Shown in pieces: positions 20,766-35,999 of a stretch of 64,000 bases of DNA. Position numbers and translations under genes: made by a program. Where the stretch lies: NCBI GenBank assembly GCA_001799845.1, contig MGUG01000041.1, forward strand, positions 124,001 to 188,000, given 5' to 3'. This DNA comes from Elusimicrobia bacterium GWC2_64_44 (GTDB taxonomy: Bacteria > Elusimicrobiota > Elusimicrobia > Elusimicrobiales > UBA9959). A model generated the notes under the pieces. The model did not search any database. It was not told where the DNA came from and was given only the letters and a program-made list of their open reading frames with translations. Each line of letters begins with the position of its first letter. Position 1 is the stretch's first letter.

Positions 20766-21905
20766 ATGAAACGCTCCGATATCTGTTTGGCTATACTGGC
20801 CGCTTCGCTGCTGACCGCTCCCGCCTGGAGCTATCTGGAGCAGGATATCGAGTTCGCCTCAAAGGACGGACATGTCCTCAAGGGGAAAATAGCTTATCCG
20901 GACAAGCCTTTGAAGGACCGGCCGGCGGTGGTGCTGGTGCACGGCAGCGGCCCCGCCGACATGGATCACTGGCTGCCGGGCGACCAGCCCGGCCTAAGAA
21001 GCACTACCGGACAGCCGGTCCGGCTTTTCGTGCAGCTGCGGGACGTTTTCCTGCAGGCGGGCTATGCCGTGCTGCGTTATAATAAGCGGGGGTATGGCGT
21101 TTTCCCGGAAAGCATCGTAATGGGAAAGGAGGGACCGGTCTGGGAGAACCCGGTTTCCGTGACCGGCACCTACCCGAACCTTGTGGACGATTCGCTCCAG
21201 GCGGTGGAGTTCCTGCGCGCGAGGCCGGGCCAGGGCGCGGCCCCGGTATTTATGGCCGGCATCAGCGAAGGGACCGCGGTCATCATCGACGCCGCGGCCC
21301 GCGACGGGAATATCGCCGGGCTTGTCCTGCTCAGCCCGGTGGCCAGGAATCTCCGCGAGACTCTCTACTACCAGAACGTGACAAGGTTTTTGGACCTGGC
21401 GAAAGCCCGGGTGGACGCAGACCGCGACGGGGTTCTATCGGGGCGGGAACTTTCGAAGTTCACCCCGGAGGAATTTCCCCCGGCCGCCGAGCCGATAGAT
21501 CTTGACGCGGACCGGGAAGCGACGGTCCTCGAGCTGGAAGCGTATCTTATAGACAAGTTTAACGGCCTGGCCGACAGGCTTACGAGCGTGGATCCGTTCA
21601 GGGAATATTACAGGGGAAAATTCGCCCTGACTCCCGGTTATAAAGAGTCCATCCCGAAACTGACCGGCAAGGTGCTTCTGGTCCAGGGCGAGGCCGACGT
21701 GCAATGCCCGCGGCCCGAGGCGCTGGTCCTGGCCGGGTATTTTAAAGCGAATCCGCGGGTGAATTTCACCTTTAAGAGTTTTCCCGGCCTGGGCCATGCC
21801 TTCTCGGTAAACCTGGGTAAAAACAAATTGATAAACACTATCGGGCCTATCGAGCCCCCGGCGCTCGATTGCATAAAAGCCTGGGCTTCTAAAGCGCAGC
21901 CTTGA
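20766..21905 (+). CDS. secreted alpha/beta hydrolase with an EF-hand-like insertion
   Basis: The 379-residue protein has a signal peptide (MKRSDICLAILAASLLTAPAWS, split about 19/20) and an alpha/beta hydrolase fold. These are the VLVHGSGPADMD oxyanion strand, the GISEGT elbow (serine about 179), LVQGEADVQCPRPEA for the acid region and GLGHAFS for the base. Between the elbow and acid strand is an insertion with a canonical calcium loop DADRDGVLSGREL (about 219-231) and a degenerate second copy DLDADREATVLELEAY. The family is the acyl-CoA thioester/dienelactone-like secreted hydrolases; the EF-hand insertion suggests calcium dependence. It follows dedA closely and may share a transcript with it. 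Confidence 0.82.
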   Translation: MKRSDICLAILAASLLTAPAWSYLEQDIEFASKDGHVLKGKIAYPDKPLKDRPAVVLVHGSGPADMDHWLPGDQPGLRSTTGQPVRLFVQLRDVFLQAGYAVLRYNKRGYGVFPESIVMGKEGPVWENPVSVTGTYPNLVDDSLQAVEFLRARPGQGAAPVFMAGISEGTAVIIDAAARDGNIAGLVLLSPVARNLRETLYYQNVTRFLDLAKARVDADRDGVLSGRELSKFTPEEFPPAAEPIDLDADREATVLELEAYLIDKFNGLADRLTSVDPFREYYRGKFALTPGYKESIPKLTGKVLLVQGEADVQCPRPEALVLAGYFKANPRVNFTFKSFPGLGHAFSVNLGKNKLINTIGPIEPPALDCIKAWASKAQP

Positions 21906-21916
21906 GTCTCCCGCGG

Positions 21917-21948
21917 TGTAAGAAAACCGGTCGTTCCGCGTAATAACG
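21917..21948 (+). promoter_or_regulatory. predicted ECF-sigma promoter upstream of the sigma gene
   Basis: TGTAAGAAAA, 11 bases, GCGTAATAACG. The same two blocks with the same 11-base gap occur at 33375-33406, before a paralogue of a gene in this operon. This implies self-activation of the sigma factor. Confidence 0.8.
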
Positions 21949-21969
21949 TTGGGAAGCGCCGGCAAACCT

Positions 21970-22464
21970 ATGGGCTTCGAAGAGCTGTACGATAAATATT
22001 TCCAGCGGGTATACAATTATATCCGCTACCGCGTACTCGCGCGCGACGCGGCGGACGACCTGGTCTCGGCCGTGTTCGAGAAGGTGCTGGACAAGTTCGA
22101 CGCGTACGACCCGGACAAGCCGGTAGAGCCGTGGCTGTTCGCCATCGCGCGCAACACGCTCAACGACTACTACCGGCGGCGGGCGGTGCGCGGCGGGCTC
22201 TCGATAGACGGCTTCGAGGAGCGCCTGGCCTCCGGCGAGTCGGTAGAGCGCTCGGCCGAGCAAAGCGAGGCGAACGCGCGCCTGCTGGCCGCGATGGGCG
22301 GCCTTTCAGAGGCCGAGCGCGAGCTGATAGCCATGAAGTACGCGCTCAACCTGAGCGGCCGGGAGATGGCTGAGCAGACGGGACTCACCGAGAGCAACGT
22401 GGGAGTGACGCTGTTCAGGGCGCTGGGCAAGCTGCGGGACCGGCTGGGGCCGGAGGGCATATGA
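21970..22464 (+). CDS. ECF-type RNA polymerase sigma factor
   Basis: This 164-residue protein has the two-domain ECF layout. Sigma region 2 is FEELYDKYFQRVYNYIRYRVLARDAADDLVSAVFEKVL..PWLFAIARNTLNDYYRRR (quoted in parts), and region 4 is LSEAERELIAMKYALNLSGREMAEQTGLTESNVGVTLFRAL. The start ATG at 21970 lacks a clear ribosome-binding site; a TTG 21 bases earlier is in frame. Its promoter matches one in front of the distant gene at 33434, so the regulon probably includes itself and that gene. The stop overlaps the next gene by four bases. Confidence 0.9.
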   Translation: MGFEELYDKYFQRVYNYIRYRVLARDAADDLVSAVFEKVLDKFDAYDPDKPVEPWLFAIARNTLNDYYRRRAVRGGLSIDGFEERLASGESVERSAEQSEANARLLAAMGGLSEAERELIAMKYALNLSGREMAEQTGLTESNVGVTLFRALGKLRDRLGPEGI

Positions 22465-22799
22465 AAGAGGAAAATTTAGACGGTAAGGAATTCGCCGGGC
22501 TGGAGCTGCGCCTGCGCAGCGCCGACCTGAGCGCCGACAGCGCCGTGAAGGACGCGCTGAGGGCGCGGCTGCTGGCCCGCGCCCGCCGGCCGGAGCGGCT
22601 GCCGGTCTTCGCCTGGCTCGCGCCGGCCTTCGCCGCGGCGGCGCTGTTCGTGACTTTCGGCCCGCGGCCCGGTAACGCGCCCGCTGCGGCACTGCCGGCG
22701 CTGACGGCCGCGGCCTCGACGTACGGCCTGCCCGATGATGGCTATGGCCCCTGCGGCCGGCGCGGCCTGGGGGATGTCCTGGCTTCGGAGCGTTTTTAA
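22461..22799 (+). CDS. small single-pass membrane protein, probable anti-sigma factor
   Basis: The 112-residue protein has a charged N-terminal cytoplasmic part (KDALRARLLARARRPERL), one membrane helix (about 47-66, AWLAPAFAAAALFVTFG) and a short outer tail (PDDGYGPCGRRGLGDVLASERF). No zinc-binding anti-sigma motif (HxxxCxxC) is present. It overlaps the sigma gene by ATGA. This position is typical of an anti-sigma factor, and the topology fits, but the assignment rests on context. Confidence 0.6.
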   Translation: MKEENLDGKEFAGLELRLRSADLSADSAVKDALRARLLARARRPERLPVFAWLAPAFAAAALFVTFGPRPGNAPAAALPALTAAASTYGLPDDGYGPCGRRGLGDVLASERF

Positions 22800-22810
22800 G
22801 GAGAACAGGT

Positions 22811-23590
22811 ATGAAGAATATTCTTGTCCTTGCCATAATGCTGTCGGCCTGGCCGGCCTGGGCTCTTGAGATCAAGAGCTCGGTCAACGCGAAAGGCGAG
22901 CTCGAAGACGAGATAAATCTGCCATTCGTGAACGATCCCGCGGCCGTGGGCCGGTGGGAAGCGGTGGACTTCGTAGGTGAGCCCGGCGATTTCGACCCGT
23001 CTGCCCGGGCAGCGAGGGGAGAGCTGTTCTTCAAAGAGCTGGTGCTGCTGCCCGACGGCAAGAGCCCCGTAGGCTGGTGGACCTGGACCAGGGGGGCGGT
23101 GATGCACGCCAACGACCGCACCGCCAGCCGTTATGAAATAAAAAACCTGGGCGGCGCGCAGTACATGTTCTTCGAGTGGAAGAGCGGCGACTATACCCTG
23201 CGGCGCATGAAGCCTAAATACTACGTGTTGAAGAAGACGGCCGGCGTGCGCCGCGACAATATAAACCTGCCTTTCCGCGACGATCCCGCCGTGGTGGGCG
23301 TGTGGGAGAGCGTTGACTTCGTGGAAAGCCCCGCAAAATTCGATCCCGCGGTCCCGGCCTGGAAGGGCGACCTTTACCTTAAAGAGCTGGCCTTCCTGCC
23401 CAAAGGCAAGGGCGGCAAGCCCTGGTGGACCTGGACCAGGGGCGTGGTGCTGCACCAGGGCGACAAGACCGCCAGCCGGTACGAGATAAAAAAGATAGGC
23501 GGCGCGGACTACCTGTTCTTCGAATGGAAGAGCGGTGACTACGTCTTCCGCGGCGCCAAACCGTTCTACTACGTCCTTAAAAGGAAATAG
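22811..23590 (+). CDS. secreted protein with two lipocalin-like/BlaR1-tail-like repeats
   Basis: A signal peptide (to about residue 20) precedes two homologous units of about 100 residues (about 33-123 and 138-258). Each starts [ED]INLPF, then WE-[AS]-VDFV, then WWTWTRG, TASRYEIK and FFEWKSGDY, and ends YYVLK. From memory, a very similar unit occurs at the C-terminus of Firmicutes M56/BlaR1-type regulatory proteins and in small secreted proteins, with unknown ligand; I could not check this. It lies 11 bases after the anti-sigma candidate and is probably controlled by the same sigma promoter. A single-unit paralogue is at 33434. Confidence 0.8.
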   Translation: MKNILVLAIMLSAWPAWALEIKSSVNAKGELEDEINLPFVNDPAAVGRWEAVDFVGEPGDFDPSARAARGELFFKELVLLPDGKSPVGWWTWTRGAVMHANDRTASRYEIKNLGGAQYMFFEWKSGDYTLRRMKPKYYVLKKTAGVRRDNINLPFRDDPAVVGVWESVDFVESPAKFDPAVPAWKGDLYLKELAFLPKGKGGKPWWTWTRGVVLHQGDKTASRYEIKKIGGADYLFFEWKSGDYVFRGAKPFYYVLKRK

Positions 23591-23605
23591 CCGGTCCGCT
23601 GAAAC

Positions 23606-25480
23606 ATGAAAACCCTGGTCGACCGCTTGCGCGGCGTTTCCGACGACGCCTTCTTCCGGCTGCTGCTGCTCGCCGCCGCGGCCGGCGCGGCCCTGCTGCA
23701 GGCGCGCTACGACGTGGGTTCCATAAACGACGACGCCAACTTCGTGCTGTTGGCGAAATTCCTGGGCGACCGCCTGTTCACTCCGGGCGGGGCCGGCTTC
23801 GCCAAGGTTTTCGCGCATTTCATGCCGGGCTACCCGCTTTTCCTCGCGCCGTTCACCGCGGTTTTCGAGCCGCACTGGGCCTGGCTGCGCTTGACCACGG
23901 CTGCCGTTTCGCTCGCTACCGTGTACGGGTGGTGGCGGCTCCTGGAGGGCTGGCTGCCCGCCGAGCAGCGGCGCTGGGCCACGCTGCTCTACGCGCTGCA
24001 CCCGGTCTTTCTCCTGTGCTCGGGCATGGTGATGGCTGACCCGTTCTTGGCCGGCCTTTTCGTGTTCGCGCTGCTGGGGCTGCGCCGGGTGCTTGAAGGC
24101 ACAGGCGGGGTCTGGGCGTACGCGCTGCTCTGCGCCGCGGCCGCCTGGGCCGTCTGGACAAAGCCCATCGGCCTTGTGCTCGCCCTCGCGCTCACGGCCG
24201 CCCTGCTGGCGGGCAAAGCCTGGAAGGCGCTGCGCTATACGGCGCTGCTGGTCTGGCTGCCCTGGCTGGCGGCCGGCGTCTCGGCTTTTCTGCGGGATCA
24301 GAGCCATACGGATTACACCGGTTACCTGCTGCGCGGACTGGCCGCCCTGGCGCAGCAGTCGTTTCTTGAGCGCGCCTACAATTCGCTGCACGCGTATATC
24401 CTGCTGTACGGTTTCACTCTGCCGTGGCCGCGCGGCACGGCCTTCGACCTGGCCGGCGCGCTGGCGATAGCGGCGGTCCTTGGCCTGGGGGCCAAAGGGC
24501 TGCACGGCCTCCTGTCCGGCCCGACGCCGGGCCGGCTGCTGGCCCTTGCCGCGGGGCTGCTCGTCGCCGGGCAGGCGCTGGTACTTTCTCTCTGGACCGT
24601 CAATTCGGAGCGCTACGCGCTGCCGCTGCTGCCGTTCGGCGCGCTGTTCCTGGTTTCCGGCCTCTACGGCTGGTGCCGGTCCCGGCCTATTGCCGCGCGG
24701 CTGCTCCTGGCCGGGACAGCCCTGGGCTTTTTGATACACACCGGCCTGCTGGTCCGCGAAACTCACTCGGCGCTGCGCGCGCCGGAGAGCAGGCTGTACT
24801 TCCGGACGCTGGCCTGGATACGCGCCGAAACCCCGCCGGAGAGCAGGTTCGCCGGCAACGGCCCCCTTATCGACCTCTACACCGGGCGCTCCGGCTATGG
24901 CCTGTCCGCCGCGGTCAACGCGGACGTTTTCTTTTCCTACCTGGCCGGCCTGCGCGTGACCCACGCCCTGGTGGACGACAGGGGCGTTCTCGCCGCGCAG
25001 GGCTCCTACCTCAATAACCAGGCCTGGCAGAAGGCGATGGAAAAAGGCTGGATCCGCGGCCACCCGCGCGTTTTTCAGAAGATCTATGCCGACCCCGTAG
25101 AAAAAACGGAGGTCTACCGCGTAACTCTCCCCGCGCGCTGGGCCGAGGCCGCCGGGTTCTATGCGCAGGCGGAGCGCGACCTCCGGGGTTCCGACCTGGC
25201 GGCGGCGGACGCTAACCTGCGCCGCGCGCTGGCCGAAGTGCCGGATTTCCCGTCGGCCCTTATGGCGCTGGCATCGGTGGAGCTGGTCCGGCGAAACGCC
25301 GCCGGGGCGGAGCGGCCGCTGCGCCGCGTTCTCGAGGTGGAGCCCAATTTCCCGCGGGCCACGCAGCTGCTGGCGGGCCTGCTGGACAGCCAGGGCCGCA
25401 AGAGCGAAGCGGACCGGGTCCGCGCCGCCGGGCTGGCCGCTCTTTCGGCCGCTCCCTTTGAAGTCGGTGCAAGACCTTGA
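23606..25480 (+). CDS. PMT/ArnT-type membrane glycosyltransferase with C-terminal TPRs
   Basis: The 624-residue protein has 11-12 predicted membrane helices with the GT-C diacid motif early (NDDANFVLLAK, about 37-47), as in ArnT/PMT (dolichyl- or undecaprenyl-phosphate sugar-dependent transferases). After the last helix comes a soluble part containing three TPR-like units (AEAAGFYAQAERDLRGSDLA, ANLRRALAEVPDFPSALMAL and RPLRRVLEVEPNFPRATQLL). Acceptors may be lipid A, a surface glycan or proteins. The start follows the secreted protein by 15 bases, so it could be in the sigma operon. The TPR tail is uncommon for this family. Confidence 0.8.
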   Translation: MKTLVDRLRGVSDDAFFRLLLLAAAAGAALLQARYDVGSINDDANFVLLAKFLGDRLFTPGGAGFAKVFAHFMPGYPLFLAPFTAVFEPHWAWLRLTTAAVSLATVYGWWRLLEGWLPAEQRRWATLLYALHPVFLLCSGMVMADPFLAGLFVFALLGLRRVLEGTGGVWAYALLCAAAAWAVWTKPIGLVLALALTAALLAGKAWKALRYTALLVWLPWLAAGVSAFLRDQSHTDYTGYLLRGLAALAQQSFLERAYNSLHAYILLYGFTLPWPRGTAFDLAGALAIAAVLGLGAKGLHGLLSGPTPGRLLALAAGLLVAGQALVLSLWTVNSERYALPLLPFGALFLVSGLYGWCRSRPIAARLLLAGTALGFLIHTGLLVRETHSALRAPESRLYFRTLAWIRAETPPESRFAGNGPLIDLYTGRSGYGLSAAVNADVFFSYLAGLRVTHALVDDRGVLAAQGSYLNNQAWQKAMEKGWIRGHPRVFQKIYADPVEKTEVYRVTLPARWAEAAGFYAQAERDLRGSDLAAADANLRRALAEVPDFPSALMALASVELVRRNAAGAERPLRRVLEVEPNFPRATQLLAGLLDSQGRKSEADRVRAAGLAALSAAPFEVGARP

Positions 25481-25588
25481 TGCTTCACGGTTTTACTCCC
25501 GGTTTCCGGGCGGTTTTTGATAATATGAATAAAGAAGACGGCGCGGGGCCGGTTTTCAGGAACGTGCCCGGGCCGCGGCGGAATACCA

Positions 25589-26275
25589 ATGGATATAATA
25601 AATATTAAAGAGCTTAAGAAAGATTACCCGCTGGGCGACACCATAGTGCCCGCGCTGCGCGGCGTGGACCTGACGGTAGCGCAGGGCGACTTCATGAGCA
25701 TCATCGGGCCCTCAGGCTCCGGCAAGACCACGCTGCTCAATATCATCGGCTGCATAGACCCGGCCACGTCAGGCAGCGTGCAGGTGGGCGGCCGCGAGAT
25801 CACCGACCTCACCGACCGGCAGATCACCGAGATCCGCCTCAACAAGATAGGTTTCATCTTCCAGACCTTCAACCTCATCCCCGTGCTGGACGTGCTGGAG
25901 AACATAGAGTTCCCGCTGCTGCTGATGAAGCGCTCGCCGGCCGAGGCCCGCAAGCGCGCCGAACAGCTGGTGGAGGAAGTGGGGCTGAAGGACTACGCCG
26001 TGCACCGCCCGTCGGAACTCTCCGGCGGCCAGCGCCAGCGCGTGGCCATAGCCCGCGCGCTCGTCACCAAGCCGGACATCGTGCTGGCCGACGAGCCCAC
26101 CGCCAACCTGGACTCCGTCACCGGCGCTTCCATCCTTGAGCTGATGAAGAAGATGAACGAGCTGGAGAACACCACCTTCATCTTCTCCACGCACGACGCC
26201 AACGTCCTTAAATACGCCTGCCGTATCGTCAAGATCAAGGACGGCCTGATAGAAAAGGAGCCCGTCGCCGCGTGA
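25589..26275 (+). CDS. LolD/MacB-type ABC transporter ATP-binding protein
   Basis: This 228-residue nucleotide-binding subunit has Walker A GPSGSGKTT (about 40-48), the signature LSGGQRQRVAIARAL and Walker B IVLADEPTANLD. The layout (LDLEN/PLLL in the Q-loop region) matches lipoprotein-releasing or MacB exporters. It is first in a five-gene unit with two FtsX-like permeases, a LolA-like protein and an outer-membrane barrel. The ATG lacks an obvious ribosome-binding site; the next gene overlaps its stop by four bases (GTGA). Confidence 0.93.
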   Translation: MDIINIKELKKDYPLGDTIVPALRGVDLTVAQGDFMSIIGPSGSGKTTLLNIIGCIDPATSGSVQVGGREITDLTDRQITEIRLNKIGFIFQTFNLIPVLDVLENIEFPLLLMKRSPAEARKRAEQLVEEVGLKDYAVHRPSELSGGQRQRVAIARALVTKPDIVLADEPTANLDSVTGASILELMKKMNELENTTFIFSTHDANVLKYACRIVKIKDGLIEKEPVAA

Positions 26276-27786
26276 AACTGATAGCCACCATCGCCTGGCG
26301 CAATATCCTGCGCCACAAGGGCAAGAGCCTCGTGATAGGGATCATCCTGTTCACGGGCGCTTTCCTGATGACGCTCGGCAACGGCGTCATCTCGGGCATG
26401 GCCAGGGGTATAGAGAAGAACATCATAGAAGGCTTCATGGGCGACATAGCGCTCATCAGCACGGCGCAGAAGTCGGACAATATCCTGCTGAATCTGATGG
26501 GTGCCAGCATCGAGCCCATCAATACCTATAAGAAGATAAAACCGGTGCTGGCGGCGCAGCCTTTTATAAAGAGTTTTCTGCCGGTGGGCAAGAATCTCTC
26601 CATGGTCCTCGACGAGCGGTCCGACACGCCGGGCTTCGCCTACCTGATAGGCGTGGACTTCGCCGAGTACCGCAAGATGTTCCCGGATAATTTCACGGTC
26701 ATCGAGGGCAGTTATCCGGCGCCGGGCGAGCGCGCCCTGCTTTTCCCGGATTTCGCGCGCGGAGAATTTTACCGGTATTACAATGTCTGGTTCGTGCCGG
26801 AGGGCGGGGGCGCGGTGAAGGCCAACCTCAGCAAGGAGGCACTCGCCGACGCCGACCACCTGATCCTCAGCAGCAGCGCCGTGCTGCTGGGCATGTCGAG
26901 CGGCATCAATACCACCAACGACATCCGCTTCCCGGTGAGGGGCGTCATCAAGTACCGCGCGCTCAACCAGATCTTCGGCCATTTCTGCCTGGTCGACATC
27001 GAGGCCTACCGCGACTGCCTGGGGTACTTTACCGCCGCCGACATGGCCGCGCAGGTGCCGAAGGAAGAGAAGAAACTCCTGGGCCTCGAAGGCGGCGACC
27101 TGGATTCCATGTTCGGCGAAGAGGCCATGGTGGTGGCCGACTATAAAAAAGCGCCGAAGAAGATAGCCGCGGAAAAGGCAGTGCCCAGCGACACCGAGGA
27201 CGGCACTTACAACGTAGTGTTCATCAGGCTGGTCCCCGGCGCCGGCTACGACGCCGCGCTGGAGAAGCTCAATAGGGACCTGGCCGCCGCCGGCACCGGC
27301 GTGAAGGCCGTGCCGTGGAACAAGGCCTCCGGCCCCATCGGCGGCATGGCCGTCATAATAAAAGGCGCGCTGTTCGTCTTCGTCATGCTGCTGTTCAGCG
27401 TGGCCATCATCATCATAGTGAACACCCTTTCCATGGCCGCCATGGAGCGGGCCTCGGAGATAGGCATGATGCGGGCCATCGGCGCGCATAAGACCTTCAT
27501 AGCCGGCATGTTCCTCGGCGAGACGGCTATACTTTCGGCCGCGTTCGGCGGCGGGGGGATAATAGCCGGGGTCATAGCCGTACGCGTGATCCCGCTGCTG
27601 CGCATCACCACGGCCAACGACATGCTGCAGATACTCTACGGCGGCAACTATTTCAACCCGCTGCTGAGCGTGACGGGCATACTGCTGACCGTGCTGCAGC
27701 TGGCGCTGGTGACCGTTATTGCGGCGGTGTACCCAATGCGCGTGGCCACCGGGATCACCCCGCTGGACGCCATTTCGAGAGATTGA
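26272..27786 (+). CDS. FtsX/MacB-type ABC permease, first of pair
   Basis: Translated from a GTG at 26272, this 504-residue protein has one membrane helix near the N-terminus (IAWRNILRHKGKSLVIGIIL), a large periplasmic domain (about 45-360) and three C-terminal helices (about 365-385, 415-445, 465-490). The final loop reads RASEIGMMRAIGAHK, the conserved FtsX motif. This is the MacB/LolCE fold, which does not carry substrate through the membrane but drives periplasmic partners. It pairs with the next, different permease. Confidence 0.92.
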   Translation: MKLIATIAWRNILRHKGKSLVIGIILFTGAFLMTLGNGVISGMARGIEKNIIEGFMGDIALISTAQKSDNILLNLMGASIEPINTYKKIKPVLAAQPFIKSFLPVGKNLSMVLDERSDTPGFAYLIGVDFAEYRKMFPDNFTVIEGSYPAPGERALLFPDFARGEFYRYYNVWFVPEGGGAVKANLSKEALADADHLILSSSAVLLGMSSGINTTNDIRFPVRGVIKYRALNQIFGHFCLVDIEAYRDCLGYFTAADMAAQVPKEEKKLLGLEGGDLDSMFGEEAMVVADYKKAPKKIAAEKAVPSDTEDGTYNVVFIRLVPGAGYDAALEKLNRDLAAAGTGVKAVPWNKASGPIGGMAVIIKGALFVFVMLLFSVAIIIIVNTLSMAAMERASEIGMMRAIGAHKTFIAGMFLGETAILSAAFGGGGIIAGVIAVRVIPLLRITTANDMLQILYGGNYFNPLLSVTGILLTVLQLALVTVIAAVYPMRVATGITPLDAISRD

Positions 27787-27788
27787 CT

Positions 27789-29546
27789 ATGCTGCTCATA
27801 AGACTCAGCCTCCGCAACCTCCTGCGCCAGAAACGCCGCAACCTGCTGCTGGGCTCCGCCATGGCCATCGGCGTGGCCATCCTCGTAGTGGCCAACTCCT
27901 TCTCGCACGGCATCTCGGATATCATGTTCAACAAGATCATGCGCTATGTCACCGGGCACGTGGCGGTGCGCTTCAACGAGCGCGGCGGCGTCTGGCGCGA
28001 GATCTTCCGGGACAGGGACCGCGCTTTCGCGGCGCTCAAGGACGAGCCGTTGATAGAGCAGGCGGACGAGTCCATAGCGATGTTCGCCCGCGCCATCGGC
28101 AACGGGCGCTCGGACAATATCATCCTCATCGGCGCGGACACGCGCAAGGGCGCCAGCCGCGAGCAGCTGGCCGAGCTGGAGGAATCCTTCCGGCTGGTGG
28201 AAGGCAGCTGGAAGGACGTGGAGAACACGGCCATAGAGAACCCGGTCATCATTTCACAGGACAAGGCCCGCTACCTCAACGTCAAGAAGAGCGACACGGT
28301 GCGCGTGCGCTTCCGCAACATGTTCGGCCAGGACCAGGCCGCCAGGCTTACCGTGGTGGGGATCATGAAGATAGACAATATCTTCATGCAGGGCGTCACT
28401 TTCCTGGAGATGGGCCGCGCCAAGGAGCTGCTGGGCTATCGCCCGTGGGAGACCGGCAGCCTCAGCCTGAAGATAAAAGACCCTCAGAAGAACGCCGCCG
28501 CGCTGGCCGACCGCCTGCACGAGAAGTTCCAGCCGGGCACCGCGGTCATCTACGCCTCGGTCTCGGGCCGCTCCGGCCGCCGGCCGGCGGCCGTGCTGGG
28601 CTTCAAGACCGACGACGCGGCTAAGGCGAAGATATCCGGCATGCTGAAGCCGGGCTCGGGCGGCTTCGACAAGCTGTTCCTGAAGAACGGCGTGCTGCTG
28701 TCGGCGGGGCTGGCCCGCGCGCTCGGCGTCTCCGCCGGAGAAAAGATAACCCTGAAGTACGACCGCATGTTCGAGAAGGGGCCGAAGGAGGCGTCATACA
28801 CGGTCAGCGCCGTCTGCGCTTCCGGCGACTGCCCGCAGGATAACGCGGTGCTGATGAACGGCGCCGCCTTCTACGAGCTCTATTACGCGGACCTGCCCGC
28901 TCCGCCCGGTCCCGGGGTCAAACCCTGGGCGCCTCCGGCCGGAGGTTGGGGTGCGCTGGCCGCGCCGGAGTGGATCCTGCTGGACCGCACCTACACCTCG
29001 GACGACTACAAGGCGAAGTACCAGGAGATCTCCCGCAACAAGTGGAAGGGCACCACCATCGACGTATCCACCATGTACGAGACGGCCAGCGATATCCTGA
29101 AGCTGGAATCGGTGCTGAACCTCATCACGCTCTCGGCCGTGCTGGTGCTGTTCTTCATTATCCTGCTGGGCGTGGTGAATACGCTGCGCATGACCATCCG
29201 CGAGCGCACCCGCGAGATAGGCACCGTGCGCGCCATCGGCATGCAGCGCCGCGACGTGCGCGACATGTTCCTCCTGGAGACCTTCTTCCTGACGCTGTTC
29301 GCCTCCGCCGCCGGGCTGCTGCTCGGCTTCGGGGCCATGCGGCTGCTGTCGCTCATCACCTTCAATATAACGGACAACCCGCTGGGCATGCTGCTGATAA
29401 ACGGGCACCTGTACTTCCTGCCCACTTTCTCCGGCGTGGCGGGCAGCGTGCTGCTGATAATCGCTATAGCCGTAGGCACGGCCTTCTTCCCGGCCCGGCG
29501 GGCGGCCAACATGCCGCCGGCCAAGGCGCTGGGCCATTTCACATGA
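27789..29546 (+). CDS. FtsX/MacB-type ABC permease, second of pair
   Basis: The 585-residue protein shares the topology of its neighbour: an N-terminal helix (RNLLRQKRRNLLLGSAMAIG), a large periplasmic domain and three C-terminal helices, with the loop RTREIGTVRAIGMQRRDV. It is not a copy of the preceding gene; identity is limited to the helices. LolC/LolE-type heterodimers are the best-known precedent. The start ATG at 27789 is two bases after the previous stop, preferred over an in-frame TTG just before it. Confidence 0.92.
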   Translation: MLLIRLSLRNLLRQKRRNLLLGSAMAIGVAILVVANSFSHGISDIMFNKIMRYVTGHVAVRFNERGGVWREIFRDRDRAFAALKDEPLIEQADESIAMFARAIGNGRSDNIILIGADTRKGASREQLAELEESFRLVEGSWKDVENTAIENPVIISQDKARYLNVKKSDTVRVRFRNMFGQDQAARLTVVGIMKIDNIFMQGVTFLEMGRAKELLGYRPWETGSLSLKIKDPQKNAAALADRLHEKFQPGTAVIYASVSGRSGRRPAAVLGFKTDDAAKAKISGMLKPGSGGFDKLFLKNGVLLSAGLARALGVSAGEKITLKYDRMFEKGPKEASYTVSAVCASGDCPQDNAVLMNGAAFYELYYADLPAPPGPGVKPWAPPAGGWGALAAPEWILLDRTYTSDDYKAKYQEISRNKWKGTTIDVSTMYETASDILKLESVLNLITLSAVLVLFFIILLGVVNTLRMTIRERTREIGTVRAIGMQRRDVRDMFLLETFFLTLFASAAGLLLGFGAMRLLSLITFNITDNPLGMLLINGHLYFLPTFSGVAGSVLLIIAIAVGTAFFPARRAANMPPAKALGHFT

Positions 29547-29553
29547 GGAACAA

Positions 29554-30315
29554 ATGACTAAACTGCTTTTGATAGCGCTCGTGTTCGCGCCGTGGACGGC
29601 CGCGGCCGCCGACAGCCGCGTGACGCCCATACTGAAGGCCATAGACGCCAACTACAAGATGAAGAAGGACCTGCGCGCCGACGTGACGCTGACTCAGCAG
29701 CGCGCCGGACAGGGCACCAAGATCATAGACATGGCCTATTTCCGCCGCGACTCGGACGACGCCTTTCTGATAGTCATGAACGCGCCTGAGAACGAGAGAG
29801 GCAACGGCTACCTGCGCGTGGGCGACAATTTCTGGATGTACCGCAAGAACACGCGCACCTTCCAGCACGTCAATCGCGACGAGAGCATAGGCGGCACCGA
29901 CGCGCACAGCGACGACTTCGAGACGCGCAAGCTGGAAGAGCTCTACGGCCCCGCGCTGGACGCGGCCGGCAAAGAGCTCTTCTCCGAGGGGCTGCTGGGC
30001 AAGGTGCCGGTCAATAAATTCGAGCTGAAGGCCAAGGTTAACGACGTGGACTACCCCAGGCATATCTACTGGACCCGCCGCGACAACGACCTGCTGCTCA
30101 AGCAGGAATCCTACGCCGCCTCCGGCACGCTGATGCAGACCGCCTATTTCCTGAAGTTCACCGAGATAGAGGGGCGCTATGTGCCGGTGAAGCAGCTGTT
30201 CATCGACGAGTTCGAGAAAGGCAACAAGACCATAGTGGAGATAGCCAACATAGTCCCCGGCAAGCTCGAGGACAAGATCTTCACCAAGGCTTACCTGGAG
30301 AACCTGAGCAAATAA
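29554..30315 (+). CDS. LolA-like outer-membrane lipoprotein-sorting protein
   Basis: The 253-residue exported protein has a signal peptide (about 1-19, TKLLLIALVFAPWTAAAA) and then a LolA/LolB-like beta domain. The family pattern is visible in LRADVTLTQQRAG, GNGYLRVGDNFWMYRKNTRTF and GLLGKVPVNKFELKAKVNDVDYP. No lipobox cysteine is present, so it should be soluble in the periplasm, as LolA is. It is 8 bases after the permease, and the barrel gene follows with 1 base between. Confidence 0.87.
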   Translation: MTKLLLIALVFAPWTAAAADSRVTPILKAIDANYKMKKDLRADVTLTQQRAGQGTKIIDMAYFRRDSDDAFLIVMNAPENERGNGYLRVGDNFWMYRKNTRTFQHVNRDESIGGTDAHSDDFETRKLEELYGPALDAAGKELFSEGLLGKVPVNKFELKAKVNDVDYPRHIYWTRRDNDLLLKQESYAASGTLMQTAYFLKFTEIEGRYVPVKQLFIDEFEKGNKTIVEIANIVPGKLEDKIFTKAYLENLSK

Positions 30316-30316
30316 T

Positions 30317-31585
30317 ATGCGCAAACTCCTACTGGCCCTGGCGCTCTTACCCGCTGCGGCGTTCGCGGAGGACGCGGCCTCGGAGCTTGAGATGTTCGGC
30401 TCGCCGGAGCTGGTCACGCAGGCCGCCTCCACCGAGCCTGCACCGGCGGAGAAGAAGAGCGTCGGCTTCTCGGGCGCTGTGACGAGCGTGATGGAGGACG
30501 TGGTCTATAGTTCCTCCGACTCGCTGAATACCTACATCCTGGGCAGCCTGCTGCTGGACGCGCGGCTGAAGAACGGCGTGAAGGCCTTCGCCAGCCTGGA
30601 GACCAGCTATTATCCCAAAACACGCCAGACCACCTCCACGCTGCGCGAGTTGTTCGTGGATTTCAATATCGCCGACCGCGTCTACTTTCGCACCGGCAAG
30701 CAGGTGCTGCAGTGGGGGCGCTGCTACCTGTGGAACCCCACCGACCTGGTCAACGTCGAGAAGATCCCCTTCGTGCCCAAGGTGGGCTCGCGCGAAGGCG
30801 CCTATGGCCTGAAGCTGCATGTCCCGTTCGGCACCAAGTACAATATCTACGGCTTCGCGGACACCGGCAGCGCCGGGACCGGGGGAGAACTTGCCGGCGC
30901 GCTGAAGCTCGAGCTGCTGGCGGGCCGCACGGAGATGGCTTTCTCCGGCTGGACCAAGAAGGACCGCAGCCCGGTGTTCGGCTACGACGTCTCCAGCAGG
31001 CTCGGCAGCGTGGACATAGCCGGCGAGGTCAGCGCGGCCGGCCGCGACAACGGCCGCTACATCCGGAATAACAACGGCACGCTGGAGACTTTCAGGAAAG
31101 AGACCCAGTGGCCGCTGAAGGCCGCGGTGAATTTCAGCAGGGGCTTCAGGGTGGGCAACTTCAACGACCGGCTGCGCGTGACCAGCGAGTTCTTTTACAA
31201 CCAGACCGGCTATGTGAAGACGCCGTTCCGGGACAAGGGCCTTTACGCATACTCGGGGCCGCTGGCGGCGGTGCTGCCCGCCGGCACCAAGGGCCTGTAC
31301 CTGCTGGGCAGCGGCCTCTACGACTCCAACTACCTGGGCCGCCATTACGGCGCGCTGTTCACCAGCGTCAGCCGCTTCCTCATCACCGACCTGACGCTGA
31401 ACATGAACTACATACACAATTTCAACGACAGCACCGGCGCCCTCTCGGCCGGGTTGAACTACAAGAATCTCAACGACTTCAGCGCCGGCTGCCTGCTGCT
31501 GGCCCCGCTGGGGCCCGCCGACGGGGAATACACCTTCTCCGGAGCAAAACTCTTCGCCCAACTCACCGCCGGGGTCTCCTTCTAG
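30317..31585 (+). CDS. outer-membrane beta-barrel protein, partner of the export operon
   Basis: The 422-residue protein has a signal peptide (MRKLLLALALLPAAAFAEDA) and an alternating amphipathic pattern of some 16-18 strands. It ends in an aromatic residue (QLTAGVSF) as outer-membrane barrels do. Segments such as FRTGKQVLQWGRCYLWNPTDLVN resemble the DUF1302-type porin-like family. As last gene of the ABC/FtsX/LolA-like operon, it may be the outer-membrane receptor or conduit for the exported molecule. No substrate is indicated. Confidence 0.78.
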   Translation: MRKLLLALALLPAAAFAEDAASELEMFGSPELVTQAASTEPAPAEKKSVGFSGAVTSVMEDVVYSSSDSLNTYILGSLLLDARLKNGVKAFASLETSYYPKTRQTTSTLRELFVDFNIADRVYFRTGKQVLQWGRCYLWNPTDLVNVEKIPFVPKVGSREGAYGLKLHVPFGTKYNIYGFADTGSAGTGGELAGALKLELLAGRTEMAFSGWTKKDRSPVFGYDVSSRLGSVDIAGEVSAAGRDNGRYIRNNNGTLETFRKETQWPLKAAVNFSRGFRVGNFNDRLRVTSEFFYNQTGYVKTPFRDKGLYAYSGPLAAVLPAGTKGLYLLGSGLYDSNYLGRHYGALFTSVSRFLITDLTLNMNYIHNFNDSTGALSAGLNYKNLNDFSAGCLLLAPLGPADGEYTFSGAKLFAQLTAGVSF

Positions 31586-31654
31586 GCGGCCCGGCCGCGG
31601 CCGCCGATCGGCTTTGCCCCGCCTTGCCACGATATAGTAAACTTTGAGCCGGGT

Positions 31655-31960
31655 ATGGGAAAGGTAATTCCGTTAGTAATTTTATTCGCCTGCGCCGCGG
31701 CCTGCCTGCCGCGGGCCAAGGCGCCGGCGTCCCCGGCCAAGGCGCCGGCGTCTCCGTCCCGGAGGGAGGCTGTGGCGACCCTCTCCCCGGAGCAGGCCAA
31801 GCTGGTGGAGCAGCTTTACTACAAGGCCGTAGGCGCCTACAGCCGCAACGACCTGGGCGCCGCCAGCGCCCATCTCAAAGAGATCCTGGCGATAAATCCC
31901 GCCCACAAGCCCGCCCTCGAACTGCGGGAGACCATACGCCTGGCCACCAAACGCAATTAG
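31655..31960 (+). CDS. TPR-motif lipoprotein
   Basis: The 101-residue protein has a signal with a likely lipobox (VILFAC, cysteine at 12). A Lys/Ala/Pro linker follows in which AKAPASP occurs twice in tandem (about 22-35), then one TPR-like pair (SPEQAKLVEQLYYKAVGAYSR and LGAASAHLKEILAINPAHKP). The next gene, the histidine kinase, starts 13 bases later, so they may be cotranscribed. Confidence 0.65.
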   Translation: MGKVIPLVILFACAAACLPRAKAPASPAKAPASPSRREAVATLSPEQAKLVEQLYYKAVGAYSRNDLGAASAHLKEILAINPAHKPALELRETIRLATKRN

Positions 31961-31973
31961 TGCCCTGGGAACC

Positions 31974-33314
31974 ATGAAGATCAAACAGTACAGGGAGACA
32001 ATAGTAAACGTCGTCCTGGCGCTGTCTGTGGTCATCCTGCTGGTCATCGCCGGCGTCTCGGGACTGATAGTGGACTCGGCCAGGCGGGCCGCGCTGGAGG
32101 CCATGAAGCAGAGGGTCGCCATGTTCTCCGCCAGGGCGGGCGCGGCCCTGTTCCCCAGTACGGACCACTTCGCGCTGCACTTCCTGGTCAACACGGTCAA
32201 GCTGGACAGCGCGGTCAGCACGGCGGCCGTGCTGCGGCAGGACGGGGCGATCCTCTCCCATTCCGACCCGGAAAAGATAGGCGACACCGACTCCGGCAAG
32301 GAGAGCGAGAAGGCCAGGAAGGCCAAGACGGCGCTGCTGCAGGAGTATCGCGACGCAGAGGACCGCCGCTGCTATTATTTTTCCGGCCCCATCCTTGTAG
32401 GCCCACGGCGCCTGGGCACGGTAGTTGTGACGGCCACTGAGGGTACGCTGGACGAACTGCTCGGCCCCACCCGGCAGAGGCTGGGCTTCATCCTCCTGGC
32501 CGCGCTGGCGGCCATCCCGGTGCTGCTGCAGCTGCGCTACCTGCTGCGCGCCGAACAGCGGGCTACCGCCATTAAGTCGGCCATGATGCGCACCGTCAGC
32601 CACGAATTCAACAACGCCATCACTGTATTGGACACCTCCGTGTTCATGCTGCACGAGACCGAGCCCGACCGCAAGGACCGGAACCGGGCCGCCCTTTACG
32701 CCACGCTGAAGTTCGAGACCAAGTCGCTGTCCCGCTACGTGAAGAACATCCTCAACGAAGCCAGGATGGAGGCCGGGCGCTTCAAGGTGGAAAAGAAAGA
32801 GCTCGCGCTGCGCGACCTGGTGTCCCGCATCGTTAATTCGATGGAAGGGCTCATGCGCCAGAAGGACGTGACCTTCAAACTCGAGGTCCCGGGCGAGCCG
32901 CTGCCGGTAGAGGCCGACCCGGAAGCCATGTCGCTGGTGATCTCCAACCTGATGGGCAACGCGGTCAAGTACGTGCCGCGCGGCGGCAGCGTGCTGGTGC
33001 GCCTCTCCCAGGACCCGGCCAGGCCGGAGCTGGTCTCTTTTTACGTGGAGAACAGCGGGCATGGTATAGCGCCCGAAGATATGAAGAAACTGAAGCGGGA
33101 ATTCTACCGCACCGAGGACGCCAAGACCGCGGCGTCCGGCTTCGGCCTGGGGCTGCGCATCTCCAACGAGATGCTGCGGCTGCACGACAGCGAGCTGCAT
33201 ATCTACAGCGAGTTCGGCAAATACTCTGCTTTCTCTTTCTCGCTGCCCGCCGCCAAACCGCCCGCGCCGCCGGTGCCGGAGCAGGAAAGCGACAAAGAAA
33301 AGAAGAAAGCCTGA
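31974..33314 (+). CDS. orphan sensor histidine kinase
   Basis: This 446-residue kinase has two membrane helices (about 10-32 and 166-185) around a periplasmic double-Cache/PAS-like sensor. The DHp H-box is TVSHEFNNAITVLDTS (H about 208). The catalytic domain carries the N-box NLMGNAVKYVP, the G1 motif GHGIAPED and G2 GFGLGLRIS. The C-tail is Pro/Glu/Lys-rich. The H-box N-N-A-I differs from the usual [LV]-R-T-P-L and resembles HWE/His-Asn variants. No response regulator lies near; its partner must be elsewhere. Confidence 0.88.
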   Translation: MKIKQYRETIVNVVLALSVVILLVIAGVSGLIVDSARRAALEAMKQRVAMFSARAGAALFPSTDHFALHFLVNTVKLDSAVSTAAVLRQDGAILSHSDPEKIGDTDSGKESEKARKAKTALLQEYRDAEDRRCYYFSGPILVGPRRLGTVVVTATEGTLDELLGPTRQRLGFILLAALAAIPVLLQLRYLLRAEQRATAIKSAMMRTVSHEFNNAITVLDTSVFMLHETEPDRKDRNRAALYATLKFETKSLSRYVKNILNEARMEAGRFKVEKKELALRDLVSRIVNSMEGLMRQKDVTFKLEVPGEPLPVEADPEAMSLVISNLMGNAVKYVPRGGSVLVRLSQDPARPELVSFYVENSGHGIAPEDMKKLKREFYRTEDAKTAASGFGLGLRISNEMLRLHDSELHIYSEFGKYSAFSFSLPAAKPPAPPVPEQESDKEKKKA

Positions 33315-33345
33315 CGCCCGGCCCGCAAGGCTCACCTCTGACCGC

Positions 33346-33375
33346 AACCGGGCACCCGCCCGGTTCCTGTTTTTT
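33346..33375 (+). terminator. terminator of the histidine kinase gene
   Basis: AACCGGGC (33346-33353) pairs with GCCCGGTT (33358-33365), then CCTGTTTTTT. It abuts the ECF-sigma promoter. Confidence 0.85.
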
Positions 33376-33406
33376 GTAAGAAAAACGGGGGCACTGCGTA
33401 ATAACG
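33375..33406 (+). promoter_or_regulatory. predicted ECF-sigma promoter
   Basis: TGTAAGAAAA, 11 bases, GCGTAATAACG: the same two blocks and gap as 21917-21948. It drives the single-unit lipocalin-like protein gene at 33434. Confidence 0.8.
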
Positions 33407-33433
33407 GGTAAGAAGGCGAAACGAGGAGGCTTT

Positions 33434-33904
33434 ATGAAACTCTGGCATATAGCGGTTACGGCGGCGCTGCTCGGCTTCGGCACCCTGGCGCTGGCCGCGG
33501 AGATCAGGATAGAGACCGCGGAACTGGACGGACGGCTGGTGGACAATATCGACCTGCCTTTCGTCGGCGACCCCGCGGTGCTTGGCGAGTGGCGCAGCGT
33601 GGACTTCGTGGCCGAGCCGGGGGACTTCGTCCCGGGCGCGAAGCGGTTCGGGGGCGAACTGTACCTGGGCGGCTTCAACTTCTTCCACGGCGGCGCCATG
33701 GGCGTGCTGCCTAACGCGCCCGCCTCGGCGCCGTGGTTCAGGTGGACCAAAGGCGTGGTGACGCACAGGGGGGACAAGACCGCGTCCCGCTATCTCATCA
33801 AGGAGCTTAAGGGGGCGACCTACATGTTCTTCGAGTGGAAGAGCGGCGACTATACCATAAGGCACCGGGCCCCGGAGTACTATGTGCTGAAGAAAGTAAA
33901 ATAG
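33434..33904 (+). CDS. secreted lipocalin-like/BlaR1-tail-like protein, single unit
   Basis: This 156-residue protein has a signal peptide (about 1-22) and one unit of the domain duplicated in the gene at 22811: NIDLPFVGDP, WRSVDFV, WFRWTKGVVTHRGDKTASRY, TYMFFEWKSGDYTIR and YYVLKK. It has a consensus GAGGAGG ribosome-binding site and, unlike neighbours, the ECF-type promoter shared with the sigma operon. It is therefore a probable member of the same regulon. Its ligand is unknown. Confidence 0.8.
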   Translation: MKLWHIAVTAALLGFGTLALAAEIRIETAELDGRLVDNIDLPFVGDPAVLGEWRSVDFVAEPGDFVPGAKRFGGELYLGGFNFFHGGAMGVLPNAPASAPWFRWTKGVVTHRGDKTASRYLIKELKGATYMFFEWKSGDYTIRHRAPEYYVLKKVK

Positions 33905-33922
33905 CGCCCCCGCACAGAAAGG

Positions 33923-33948
33923 AGCCCCCCTTCGCGGGGGCTTTTTTC
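33923..33948 (+). terminator. rho-independent terminator
   Basis: AGCCCCC (33923-33929) pairs with GGGGGCT (33936-33942), followed by TTTTT. Confidence 0.87.
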
Positions 33949-33951
33949 TTG

Positions 33952-33981
33952 TTGACCGGGGCGAGCGGGTTGTGTTAGAAT
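33952..33981 (+). promoter_or_regulatory. promoter of the TetR operon
   Basis: TTGACC, an 18-base spacer and TAGAAT. The start point would fall about 33988, inside the operator. Confidence 0.75.
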
Positions 33982-33984
33982 ATG

Positions 33985-34006
33985 TATGAACGAACGCTCG
34001 TTCATA
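33985..34006 (+). promoter_or_regulatory. TetR-family operator, 22-bp palindrome
   Basis: The two half-sites TATGAACGA and TCGTTCATA are perfect complements around a four-base centre with two mismatches (20 of 22 positions symmetric). It covers the expected transcription start and ends one base before the regulator's ATG, so bound TetR would block its own operon. Confidence 0.85.
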
Positions 34007-34007
34007 T

Positions 34008-34631
34008 ATGGCTAAAGCGGCGCTAAAGACAAAAAAGAACGGCTCGGCCCCCAACCTGGACCGCATACTGGCGGCGGCCTCGCTGCTGTTCACCCGCAAG
34101 GGCTACAACGGCACCTCCACGCGCGACATCGCGGCCGAGGCCGGCGTGTCGCTGGGCAATATCTACAACTACTTCGGCACCAAGGAAGAGATCTTCGTCC
34201 TGCTGCTGGAGAAATACGAGAAAGAATATTTCAGCCCCGACCAGCCGCTAATCAAGGCGCTGACCTCCACCGCCTTCCCCGACAACATAGAGGGCCTGGG
34301 CTTCGCTTCCCGCGAAATGGTTGAGAAATTCTCCGCCTACATCCTCCTTATCTATGTGGACGTGGTCGAATTTGAAGCCAAACACGTGAACAAGATGTTC
34401 GCCCGCATGCGCCAGGGCTACGCCGCCGCGCTGAAGGCCGGCGGGCATAAGGCGAAGAGCCGCATAGCCGCGGACATCGACCCGGTGGGCGCGCTGATGA
34501 TGGTGACCTGGAACTATTTCAACTACTTCATCATGGAGAAGCTCTTCAAGGTGAAGGGCCATTACGGCCTGGCCGACGAGCAGGCCGTGAAGCTGTTCGC
34601 GAGGGTGTTCAAGCGGGGGATACTGGCATGA
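34008..34631 (+). CDS. TetR-family transcriptional regulator
   Basis: The 207-residue protein has an N-terminal Lys-rich arm, then the TetR DNA-binding domain: RILAAASLLFTRKGYNGTSTRDIAAEAGVSLGNIYNYFGTKEEIF (quoted in parts). The C-terminal ligand domain (about 75-200) is helical and family-variable, and may sense acyl-CoA given its neighbours. The gene has a promoter and operator of its own upstream, and ATGA overlap links it to the CoA-transferase gene. Autorepression with derepression by a CoA ester is the simplest model (inference). Confidence 0.92.
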   Translation: MAKAALKTKKNGSAPNLDRILAAASLLFTRKGYNGTSTRDIAAEAGVSLGNIYNYFGTKEEIFVLLLEKYEKEYFSPDQPLIKALTSTAFPDNIEGLGFASREMVEKFSAYILLIYVDVVEFEAKHVNKMFARMRQGYAAALKAGGHKAKSRIAADIDPVGALMMVTWNYFNYFIMEKLFKVKGHYGLADEQAVKLFARVFKRGILA

Positions 34632-35962: not shown

Positions 35963-35999
35963 ATTTGTATTTCAGTTAATCTAACGGAGGGATAATAAA

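What the first reader, a model, noticed from the sequence alone, without database searches (positions are those of the whole stretch)
21917..33904. An ECF sigma regulon deduced from two matched promoters
TGTAAGAAAA-N11-GCGTAATAACG occurs with identical block spacing before the sigma gene (21917) and before a single-unit secreted protein gene (33375). The second gene is a paralogue of a two-unit protein encoded in the sigma operon (22811). Shared promoter plus shared unusual domain makes a self-activating sigma regulon likely, with the repeat proteins as its output and a zinc-motif-free small membrane protein as probable anti-sigma.
Basis: partly seen in the sequence, partly recalled or inferred. 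Interest (0 to 1): 0.8.

Follow-up and report, generated by a model that had tools for sequence, protein, structure and literature searches.

The report
Two-promoter sigma regulon of sensor-like proteins
A bacterium of the phylum Elusimicrobiota appears to use a dedicated sigma factor to switch on two promoters, that of its own operon and that of a secreted protein related to one in the operon; the promoter pair recurs across its genus, and the secreted proteins belong to an unnamed domain family that elsewhere is built into signalling proteins.

Summary
In detail: TGTAAGAAAA-N11-GCGTAATAACG occurs exactly at 21917 and 33375 (0.01 expected per window). The regulon reading is strongly supported by comparison; there are no expression data. 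Over 32 genus genomes, TGTAAK-N15-GCGTAWTAAC (up to 1 mismatch) gives 41 matches in 21 genomes, reversed control 3; 39 of 41 lie directly before the sigma gene or a single-unit-type gene. All 25 sigma genes examined with upstream DNA carry the site, 4 gut-type loci included. Of 13 genus genomes without this sigma, 11 have no site; the other two have clusters cut by contig ends. The window's own draft genome shows no further convincing site, so the regulon looks closed: sigma, anti-sigma, two-unit and single-unit proteins. The domain (about 110 aa; no significant Pfam, NCBIfam or PDB match) occurs elsewhere fused to M56/BlaR1, MerR, HAAS, kinase, subtilase and anti-sigma-like proteins, so it is probably a sensor module rather than mere output. 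Best mechanism (inferred): the secreted two-unit protein is the detached extracytoplasmic sensor of the anti-sigma, acting on its conserved C-terminal tail. New variant of a known kind.

The parts
21917..21948 (+). Promoter P1 of the sigma operon: TGTAAG(AAAA)-N11-GCGTAATAACG
21970..22464 (+). ECF sigma factor, 164 aa (ATG 21970; the TTG at 21949 is a less likely start, since relatives begin at the same M-x-F-E-E)
22461..22799 (+). Probable anti-sigma factor, 112 aa, one hydrophobic segment at about residues 50-66 (by eye), no zinc motif
22743..22796 (+). Conserved C-terminal tail of the anti-sigma (YGPCGRRGLGDVLASERF), proposed docking peptide
   Evidence: docking is inference
22811..23590 (+). 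Two-unit protein, 259 aa, signal-peptide-like N-terminus (by eye); proposed detached sensor
33346..33374 (+). Terminator-like hairpin and T run that touches the -35 box of P2
33375..33406 (+). Promoter P2 of the single-unit gene
33434..33904 (+). Single-unit protein, 156 aa, signal-peptide-like N-terminus (by eye)
33926..33940 (+). Terminator-like hairpin after the single-unit gene, which makes it look like a one-gene unit

Best explanation
An ECF sigma factor directs RNA polymerase to two promoters: that of its own operon (sigma, anti-sigma, secreted two-unit protein) and that of a one-gene unit for a secreted single-unit paralogue. Shown by comparison: the promoter pair, its direction and spacing, and its exclusive link to this sigma. 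Inferred: the membrane anti-sigma holds the sigma; the two-unit protein works outside the membrane as its detached sensor partner and acts on the conserved C-terminal tail of the anti-sigma; a ligand or envelope signal changes this contact and frees the sigma; the circuit then amplifies itself, and the single-unit protein buffers the same signal or competes with the two-unit sensor. The regulon part alone I put at about 0.93; the number below is for the whole statement.
For: 39 of 41 genus matches lie directly before these genes and point at them, reversed control 3. 25 of 25 examined sigma genes with upstream DNA have the site. 11 of 13 genus genomes without the sigma have no match, the other two have clusters cut by contig ends. 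In 15 loci sigma, anti-sigma, two-unit and single-unit genes (with or without a sigma start on the contig) are neighbours. Two-unit arrays are fused to anti-sigma-like one-segment proteins at L156, L157, L161 and L155; the first two named and L161 lie in loci with an ECF gene just upstream (L157 with a subtilase gene between), L155 is at a contig end. The anti-sigma tail is conserved in the family and recognisable in gut loci. The domain is fused to M56, HAAS, MerR, kinase and subtilase domains elsewhere.
Against: No expression or binding data. The fused proteins are called anti-sigma-like from position and apparent topology only; no family model matches them. G024 has the sigma operon and site but no single-unit gene, and G012 and G055 likewise show only the sigma site in the stretches read, so the single-unit gene is not essential to the circuit. 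The tail is not strict: G044 departs from it and 3 of 4 gut proteins lack the Cys. One further match in G047, 1 mismatch, lies before an ATG and could be another target. The domain also occurs in proteins that are not evidently regulators (for example L130, L135). A draft genome of 90% completeness can hide sites.
Confidence: 0.6

Rival explanations
1. Same regulon, but both repeat proteins are only effectors (for example ligand-sequestering or envelope-protecting proteins); the anti-sigma senses by itself or through another protein.
For: Both are secreted-type proteins under the sigma's promoters; single-unit lipoprotein-like copies exist in genomes without the sigma (G035, G052).
Against: The same two-unit array is fused to anti-sigma-like proteins beside ECF genes and the domain sits in M56, MerR, HAAS and kinase proteins; the anti-sigma has almost no extracytoplasmic part but a conserved tail.
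Confidence: 0.3
2. The site is a promoter of a different ECF sigma of the same genomes (a paralogue), not of the neighbouring one.
For: Paralogues 41-47% identical exist in 12 places of the genus; ECF specificity cannot be read from sequence alone here.
Against: G033 and G034 have such a paralogue but no neighbouring-type sigma and no site; sites follow the neighbouring sigma in every genus genome that has it.
Confidence: 0.05
3. The element is the operator of a DNA-binding regulator, for instance the TetR-type protein encoded after the single-unit gene.
For: A TetR-like gene lies next to the single-unit gene in the window and in 8 of the 31 fetched stretches.
Against: The element is not palindromic, always points at the gene (39 of 39), has promoter spacing and lies directly before the start codon; it stands before the sigma gene also in loci where no such gene was seen.
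Confidence: 0.03
4. The second site is a relic carried along by duplication of the operon and no longer used by the sigma.
For: The single-unit and two-unit genes are paralogues.
Against: Boxes are kept while spacers have diverged; the variable box letters agree within a genome in 97 of 108 comparisons against a shuffle mean of 64, spacers in 99 of 198 against 87 (relatedness inflates both, and one G047 spacer base was dropped).
Confidence: 0.02

Closest known systems
E. coli RpoE-RseA-RseB (passages of PMC8103513)
   Same: Autoregulated ECF operon with a membrane anti-sigma and a secreted third protein that in E. coli binds the periplasmic part of the anti-sigma
   Different: The third protein is of another family (no RseB/MucB match in Pfam); the extracytoplasmic part of the anti-sigma is a short tail; the regulon seems to hold two promoters
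BldN-RsbN of Streptomyces
   Same: BldN family is the best NCBIfam model (134.8 bits); best PDB chain 6dxo_A, E 2.8e-11 (that 6dxo is BldN-RsbN is recalled); membrane-anchored anti-sigma without need for zinc (RsbN class from a passage of PMC8103513)
   Different: Below the BldN cut-off of 206.45; no match of the anti-sigma profile to any RsbN chain
Lipocalins / calycins
   Same: G-x-W in the domain (invariant in 56 units), all-beta model, weak hits to lipocalins and fatty-acid-binding proteins
   Different: No hit is significant (none with E <= 0.001; best sequence hit E 0.14) and the listed TM-scores are below 0.5
Clostridia-type ECF loci with a fused two-unit protein (L156, L157, L161; own observation)
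   Same: ECF sigma, one-segment membrane protein, two domain units
   Different: The units are part of the membrane protein and there is no separate tail

Membership tests
ECF sigma factors | Only sigma domains 2 and 4 | tested here: met
   Sigma70_r2 1.1e-12 and Sigma70_r4_2 2.3e-11 in 171 aa
ECF sigma factors | -10 box with CGT (hallmark listed in PMC8103513) | tested here: met
   GCGTAWTAAC
ECF sigma factors | -35 box with AAC (early hallmark, not a defining feature now; same passage) | tested here: not met
   TGTAAT or TGTAAG
ECF sigma factors | Encoded with an anti-sigma and positively autoregulated | tested here: inconclusive
   Gene order and conserved site fit; transcription and inhibition not testable
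BldN family (TIGR02952) | Score above the curated cut-off | tested here: not met
   134.8 against 206.45 bits
Class I zinc anti-sigma factors | Hx3Cx2C motif (found only in about half of class I, PMC7406223) | tested here: not met
   No His and one Cys in the window protein
Anti-sigma factors in general | Binds and inhibits the cognate sigma | not testable with these tools
   Position, conservation and apparent topology only; no Pfam family in 15 proteins (CnrY once at E 0.13)
RseB/MucB family | Pfam match of the secreted third protein | tested here: not met
   No such match at E <= 1
Lipocalin/calycin fold | Barrel recognised by structure comparison | tested here: inconclusive

The most novel reading that the evidence does not exclude
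The 110-aa 'EWKSGDY' unit is an undescribed sensor module used across phyla (M56 receptors, MerR and HAAS proteins, kinases, anti-sigmas). In Elusimicrobiota it has been cut loose from the anti-sigma, which keeps only a short conserved tail as docking peptide, and the sigma's whole regulon is the switch itself plus a further copy of its sensor domain: a closed circuit that sets its own sensitivity.
Probability: 0.4. Interest if true: 0.75.

Novelty: new variant of a known kind. Interest (0 to 1): 0.6.

Why it matters
It gives a very small, apparently self-contained sigma circuit in a little-studied phylum, with its promoter defined by comparison alone, and points to a widespread domain, often in signalling proteins, that no Pfam or NCBIfam model in the copies searched covers. 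The contrast between fused units (Clostridia-type loci) and secreted units (here) makes a testable prediction of what touches the anti-sigma outside the cell.

Tried and rejected
TetR operator: rejected because the element is directional, non-palindromic and spaced like a promoter. Housekeeping promoter: the sigma-70 scan of 21500-34200 found 2 candidates, neither at the two sites. Anti-phage defence: no PADLOC match for the four proteins at E <= 0.01. DUF4909: weak in 1 of 56 units, in the two-unit protein (E 0.027) and top but not significant in Foldseek. PF07935 (SSV1 ORF D-335) matches 16 of 56 units, best E 1e-5; where coordinates were shown the stretch is about 19 residues, and I take it as chance resemblance. 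A residue of sigma region 4 that would explain the AAAA/ACTT difference after the -35 box: sought by eye, none clear. Subtilase relative in the own genome: none found, but that search had no positive control. The two genus matches outside the clusters: G026 lies inside a long open frame (taken as chance), G047 lies before an ATG and stays open. Literature, listings only: 'EWKSGDY' 0 papers; Elusimicrobia + ECF sigma factor 1, a sigma-54 study; 4 of 5 ECF/Elusimicrobi terms 53 papers, 20 listed, none with an Elusimicrobi term; RsbN + BldN + anti-sigma 50, 10 listed; M56/BlaR1/lipocalin/anti-sigma terms 1, on regulated proteolysis; Elusimicrobiota + sigma factor + anti-sigma 1, a rhizosphere study. 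Passages were seen of PMC7406223 and PMC8103513 only. The library lacks most subscription journals, so absence there is weak.

Full report
Observation. The two sites are as described: 21917 TGTAAGAAAA-CCGGTCGTTCC-GCGTAATAACG and 33375 TGTAAGAAAA-ACGGGGGCACT-GCGTAATAACG; with up to 3 mismatches the window holds only these two, against 0.01 expected. Both lie between genes. The sigma starts best at the ATG 21970, because the relatives' proteins begin at the same place. The 22811 protein holds two domain units and the 33434 protein one.

Own genome. The window is part of a 3.09 Mb draft in 60 contigs, 90% complete. TGTAAG-N15-GCGTAATAACG with up to 3 mismatches gives the two exact sites and two sites with 3 mismatches; the reversed control gives 1. 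TGTAAK-N15,16-CGTAWTA gives the two alone, control 0. The domain is found in these two genes; a third match has E 0.249. So in this draft the regulon seems to be two transcription units.

Organism. Among named records the nearest two-unit sequences are from Elusimicrobia metagenome genomes such as GWB2_63_16, GWD2_63_28 and STC_50 (which may leave out the window's own record); I therefore place the window in Elusimicrobiota by similarity.

Genus. The single-unit protein has matches (E <= 0.001) in 28 of 59 genomes of the family. TGTAAK-N15-GCGTAWTAAC with up to 1 mismatch gives 41 matches in 21 of 32 genus genomes, reversed control 3 (sums made by hand from its table). From 31 fetched stretches, 39 of the 41 lie directly before the sigma gene or a single-unit-type gene and point at it. 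The other two are in G026, inside a long open frame, and in G047, before an ATG.

Co-occurrence. A sigma at least 55% identical is found in 19 of 32 genomes, 20 genes; 12 further places are 41-47% paralogues. Nineteen of the 20 have the site upstream (G040 with 2 mismatches, so not counted); the twentieth, in G044, is cut by the contig end. With G012 and G055 of other genera (2 and 1 mismatches) and four loci of gut-type Elusimicrobia (L124, L125, L129, L145; 0, 1, 1 and 2 mismatches, sixth -10 letter free) this is 25 of 25 sigma genes examined that have upstream DNA. The six outside the genus were found through their domain neighbour, not by a sigma search. Of the 13 genus genomes without this sigma, 11 have no match; G043 and G054 have one each before a single-unit gene on contigs that end at the cluster. 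G035 and G052 have a single-unit gene but neither sigma nor match; G025 has only a subtilase fusion and no match. G040 has two adjacent single-unit genes, each with the site; G042 has two copies of the whole group. G024 has the sigma group and site but no single-unit gene. The single-unit site of G047 has a 16-base spacer.

Shape of the promoter. In the 25 sigma sites TGTAAT and GCGTAWTAAC carry 1.3-1.9 bits per position except the W (0.5), while the 25 bases upstream stay at or below 0.7. In the 22 single-unit sites the upstream flank is itself conserved (up to 1.4 bits), because a terminator-like G-rich stem and T run precede the -35 box; there is also some conservation just downstream in both sets (up to 1.0 and 1.6 bits). 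All these sequences are related, so the numbers describe, they do not test. The letters after TGTAA come in two main kinds, GAAAA/TAAAA and TACTT, and agree within a genome in 97 of 108 comparisons over 18 pairs (shuffle mean 64; 0 of 10000 shuffles reach it); spacers agree in 99 of 198 (mean 87; 402 of 10000). Since the AAAA kind is in close relatives this is suggestive only. In G024, G041, G050 and G053 the sigma ATG begins 5 bases after the box, so the element cannot act as leader RNA there and the mRNA may be leaderless (inference).

Gene order. In 15 loci of 14 genomes the two-unit gene is followed directly by the site and the single-unit gene; in the window, G029 and G047 about 6-10 kb of other genes lie between, and in G027 the two halves are on different contigs. 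The site pair is kept in all of these.

Anti-sigma. The 112-aa protein has a basic N-terminal part, one hydrophobic segment (by eye) and a short C-terminus. In an alignment of 15 of the 22 family proteins (the 7 with overlong frames were left out) the invariant residues are L14, L18, D22, S27, L33, L37, L38, W52, P55 and, in the tail, C98, G99, R100, G102, L103, D105, R111. In the full set of 26 proteins G044 departs in the last residues, and the four gut proteins end in a related tail (PRG kept; Cys missing in 3 of 4). No Pfam family or PDB chain matches significantly.

The domain. In 56 units from several phyla G-x-W, W-T-x-G, T-A, E-W-K-S-G-D-Y and P-x-Y-Y-V are invariant or nearly so. No curated Pfam or NCBIfam family fits above its cut-off, and the PDB has no significant sequence match. 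AlphaFold2 gives an all-beta unit (pLDDT 88.9) and a less certain two-unit model (83.2, pTM 0.66, 10 sequences). Foldseek lists many lipocalin and fatty-acid-binding-protein rows, none with E <= 0.001: calycin-like is a lead, not a result.

Architectures. Seventy-three loci in genome contigs encode the domain (found with two short peptide patterns, so a lower bound). I scanned 15 of the larger proteins with Pfam: M56/BlaR1 4, HAAS 2 (one below its cut-off), MerR 2, protein kinase 1, subtilase 1, lectin/CARDB 1, no family 4; 4 further Elusimicrobia proteins are subtilase fusions. Three of the four without a family (L156, L157, L161), and L155 at a contig end, have a short N-terminus, one hydrophobic segment (by eye) and two units. 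L156 and L161 overlap or directly follow an ECF-type gene; in L157 a subtilase gene lies between. I read them as anti-sigma factors with the two-unit array attached; NCBIfam and Pfam do not name them. They lack the conserved tail. In Elusimicrobiota the array is a separate secreted protein and the anti-sigma has the tail. That contrast is why I favour a sensor role (0.6) over pure output (0.3).

Mechanism by step. Shown by comparison: promoter pair, link to this sigma, autoregulatory site. Strongly suggested: the 112-aa protein is the anti-sigma. Inferred: the two-unit protein touches the tail; a signal changes the contact; the single-unit protein buffers or competes. Unknown: the signal.

Comparison. 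It works like RpoE-RseA-RseB in layout, without homology of the third protein. By sequence the sigma is nearest to the BldN model but below its cut-off. Features of ECF and anti-sigma classes come from passages of PMC8103513 and PMC7406223.

Noticed in passing
L157:4530-5753; L039, L047, L058, L066, L067, L153: A subtilase (S8) type travels with the domain: fused to it in several genomes and encoded between sigma and the fused anti-sigma-like gene in L157. It could be a protease of the cascade.
   Followed up: partly
window 34008-37178: A TetR-like regulator followed by genes that look like an acetyl-CoA hydrolase/transferase and a thiolase (labels by eye and recall, not searched) lies after the single-unit gene; the TetR-like neighbour occurs in 8 of 31 fetched stretches.
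   Followed up: no
L178 (G047:C54:238844-238874, - strand): A 1-mismatch copy of the promoter before an ATG with an AGGA-rich stretch, outside the cluster; possible extra target in that genome.
   Followed up: partly
L038, L051, L060, L063 (G024, G041, G050, G053): Sigma ATG only 5 bases after the -10 box: possibly leaderless sigma mRNA.
   Followed up: no
L052 and L053 (G042), L050 (G040): Whole sigma group present twice in G042; two adjacent single-unit genes, each with its own site, in G040.
   Followed up: partly
L174, L175, L176 (IMG/VR contigs): Three contigs classed as viral encode relatives of the domain (28-38% identity, 3 of 19 candidate stretches).
   Followed up: no
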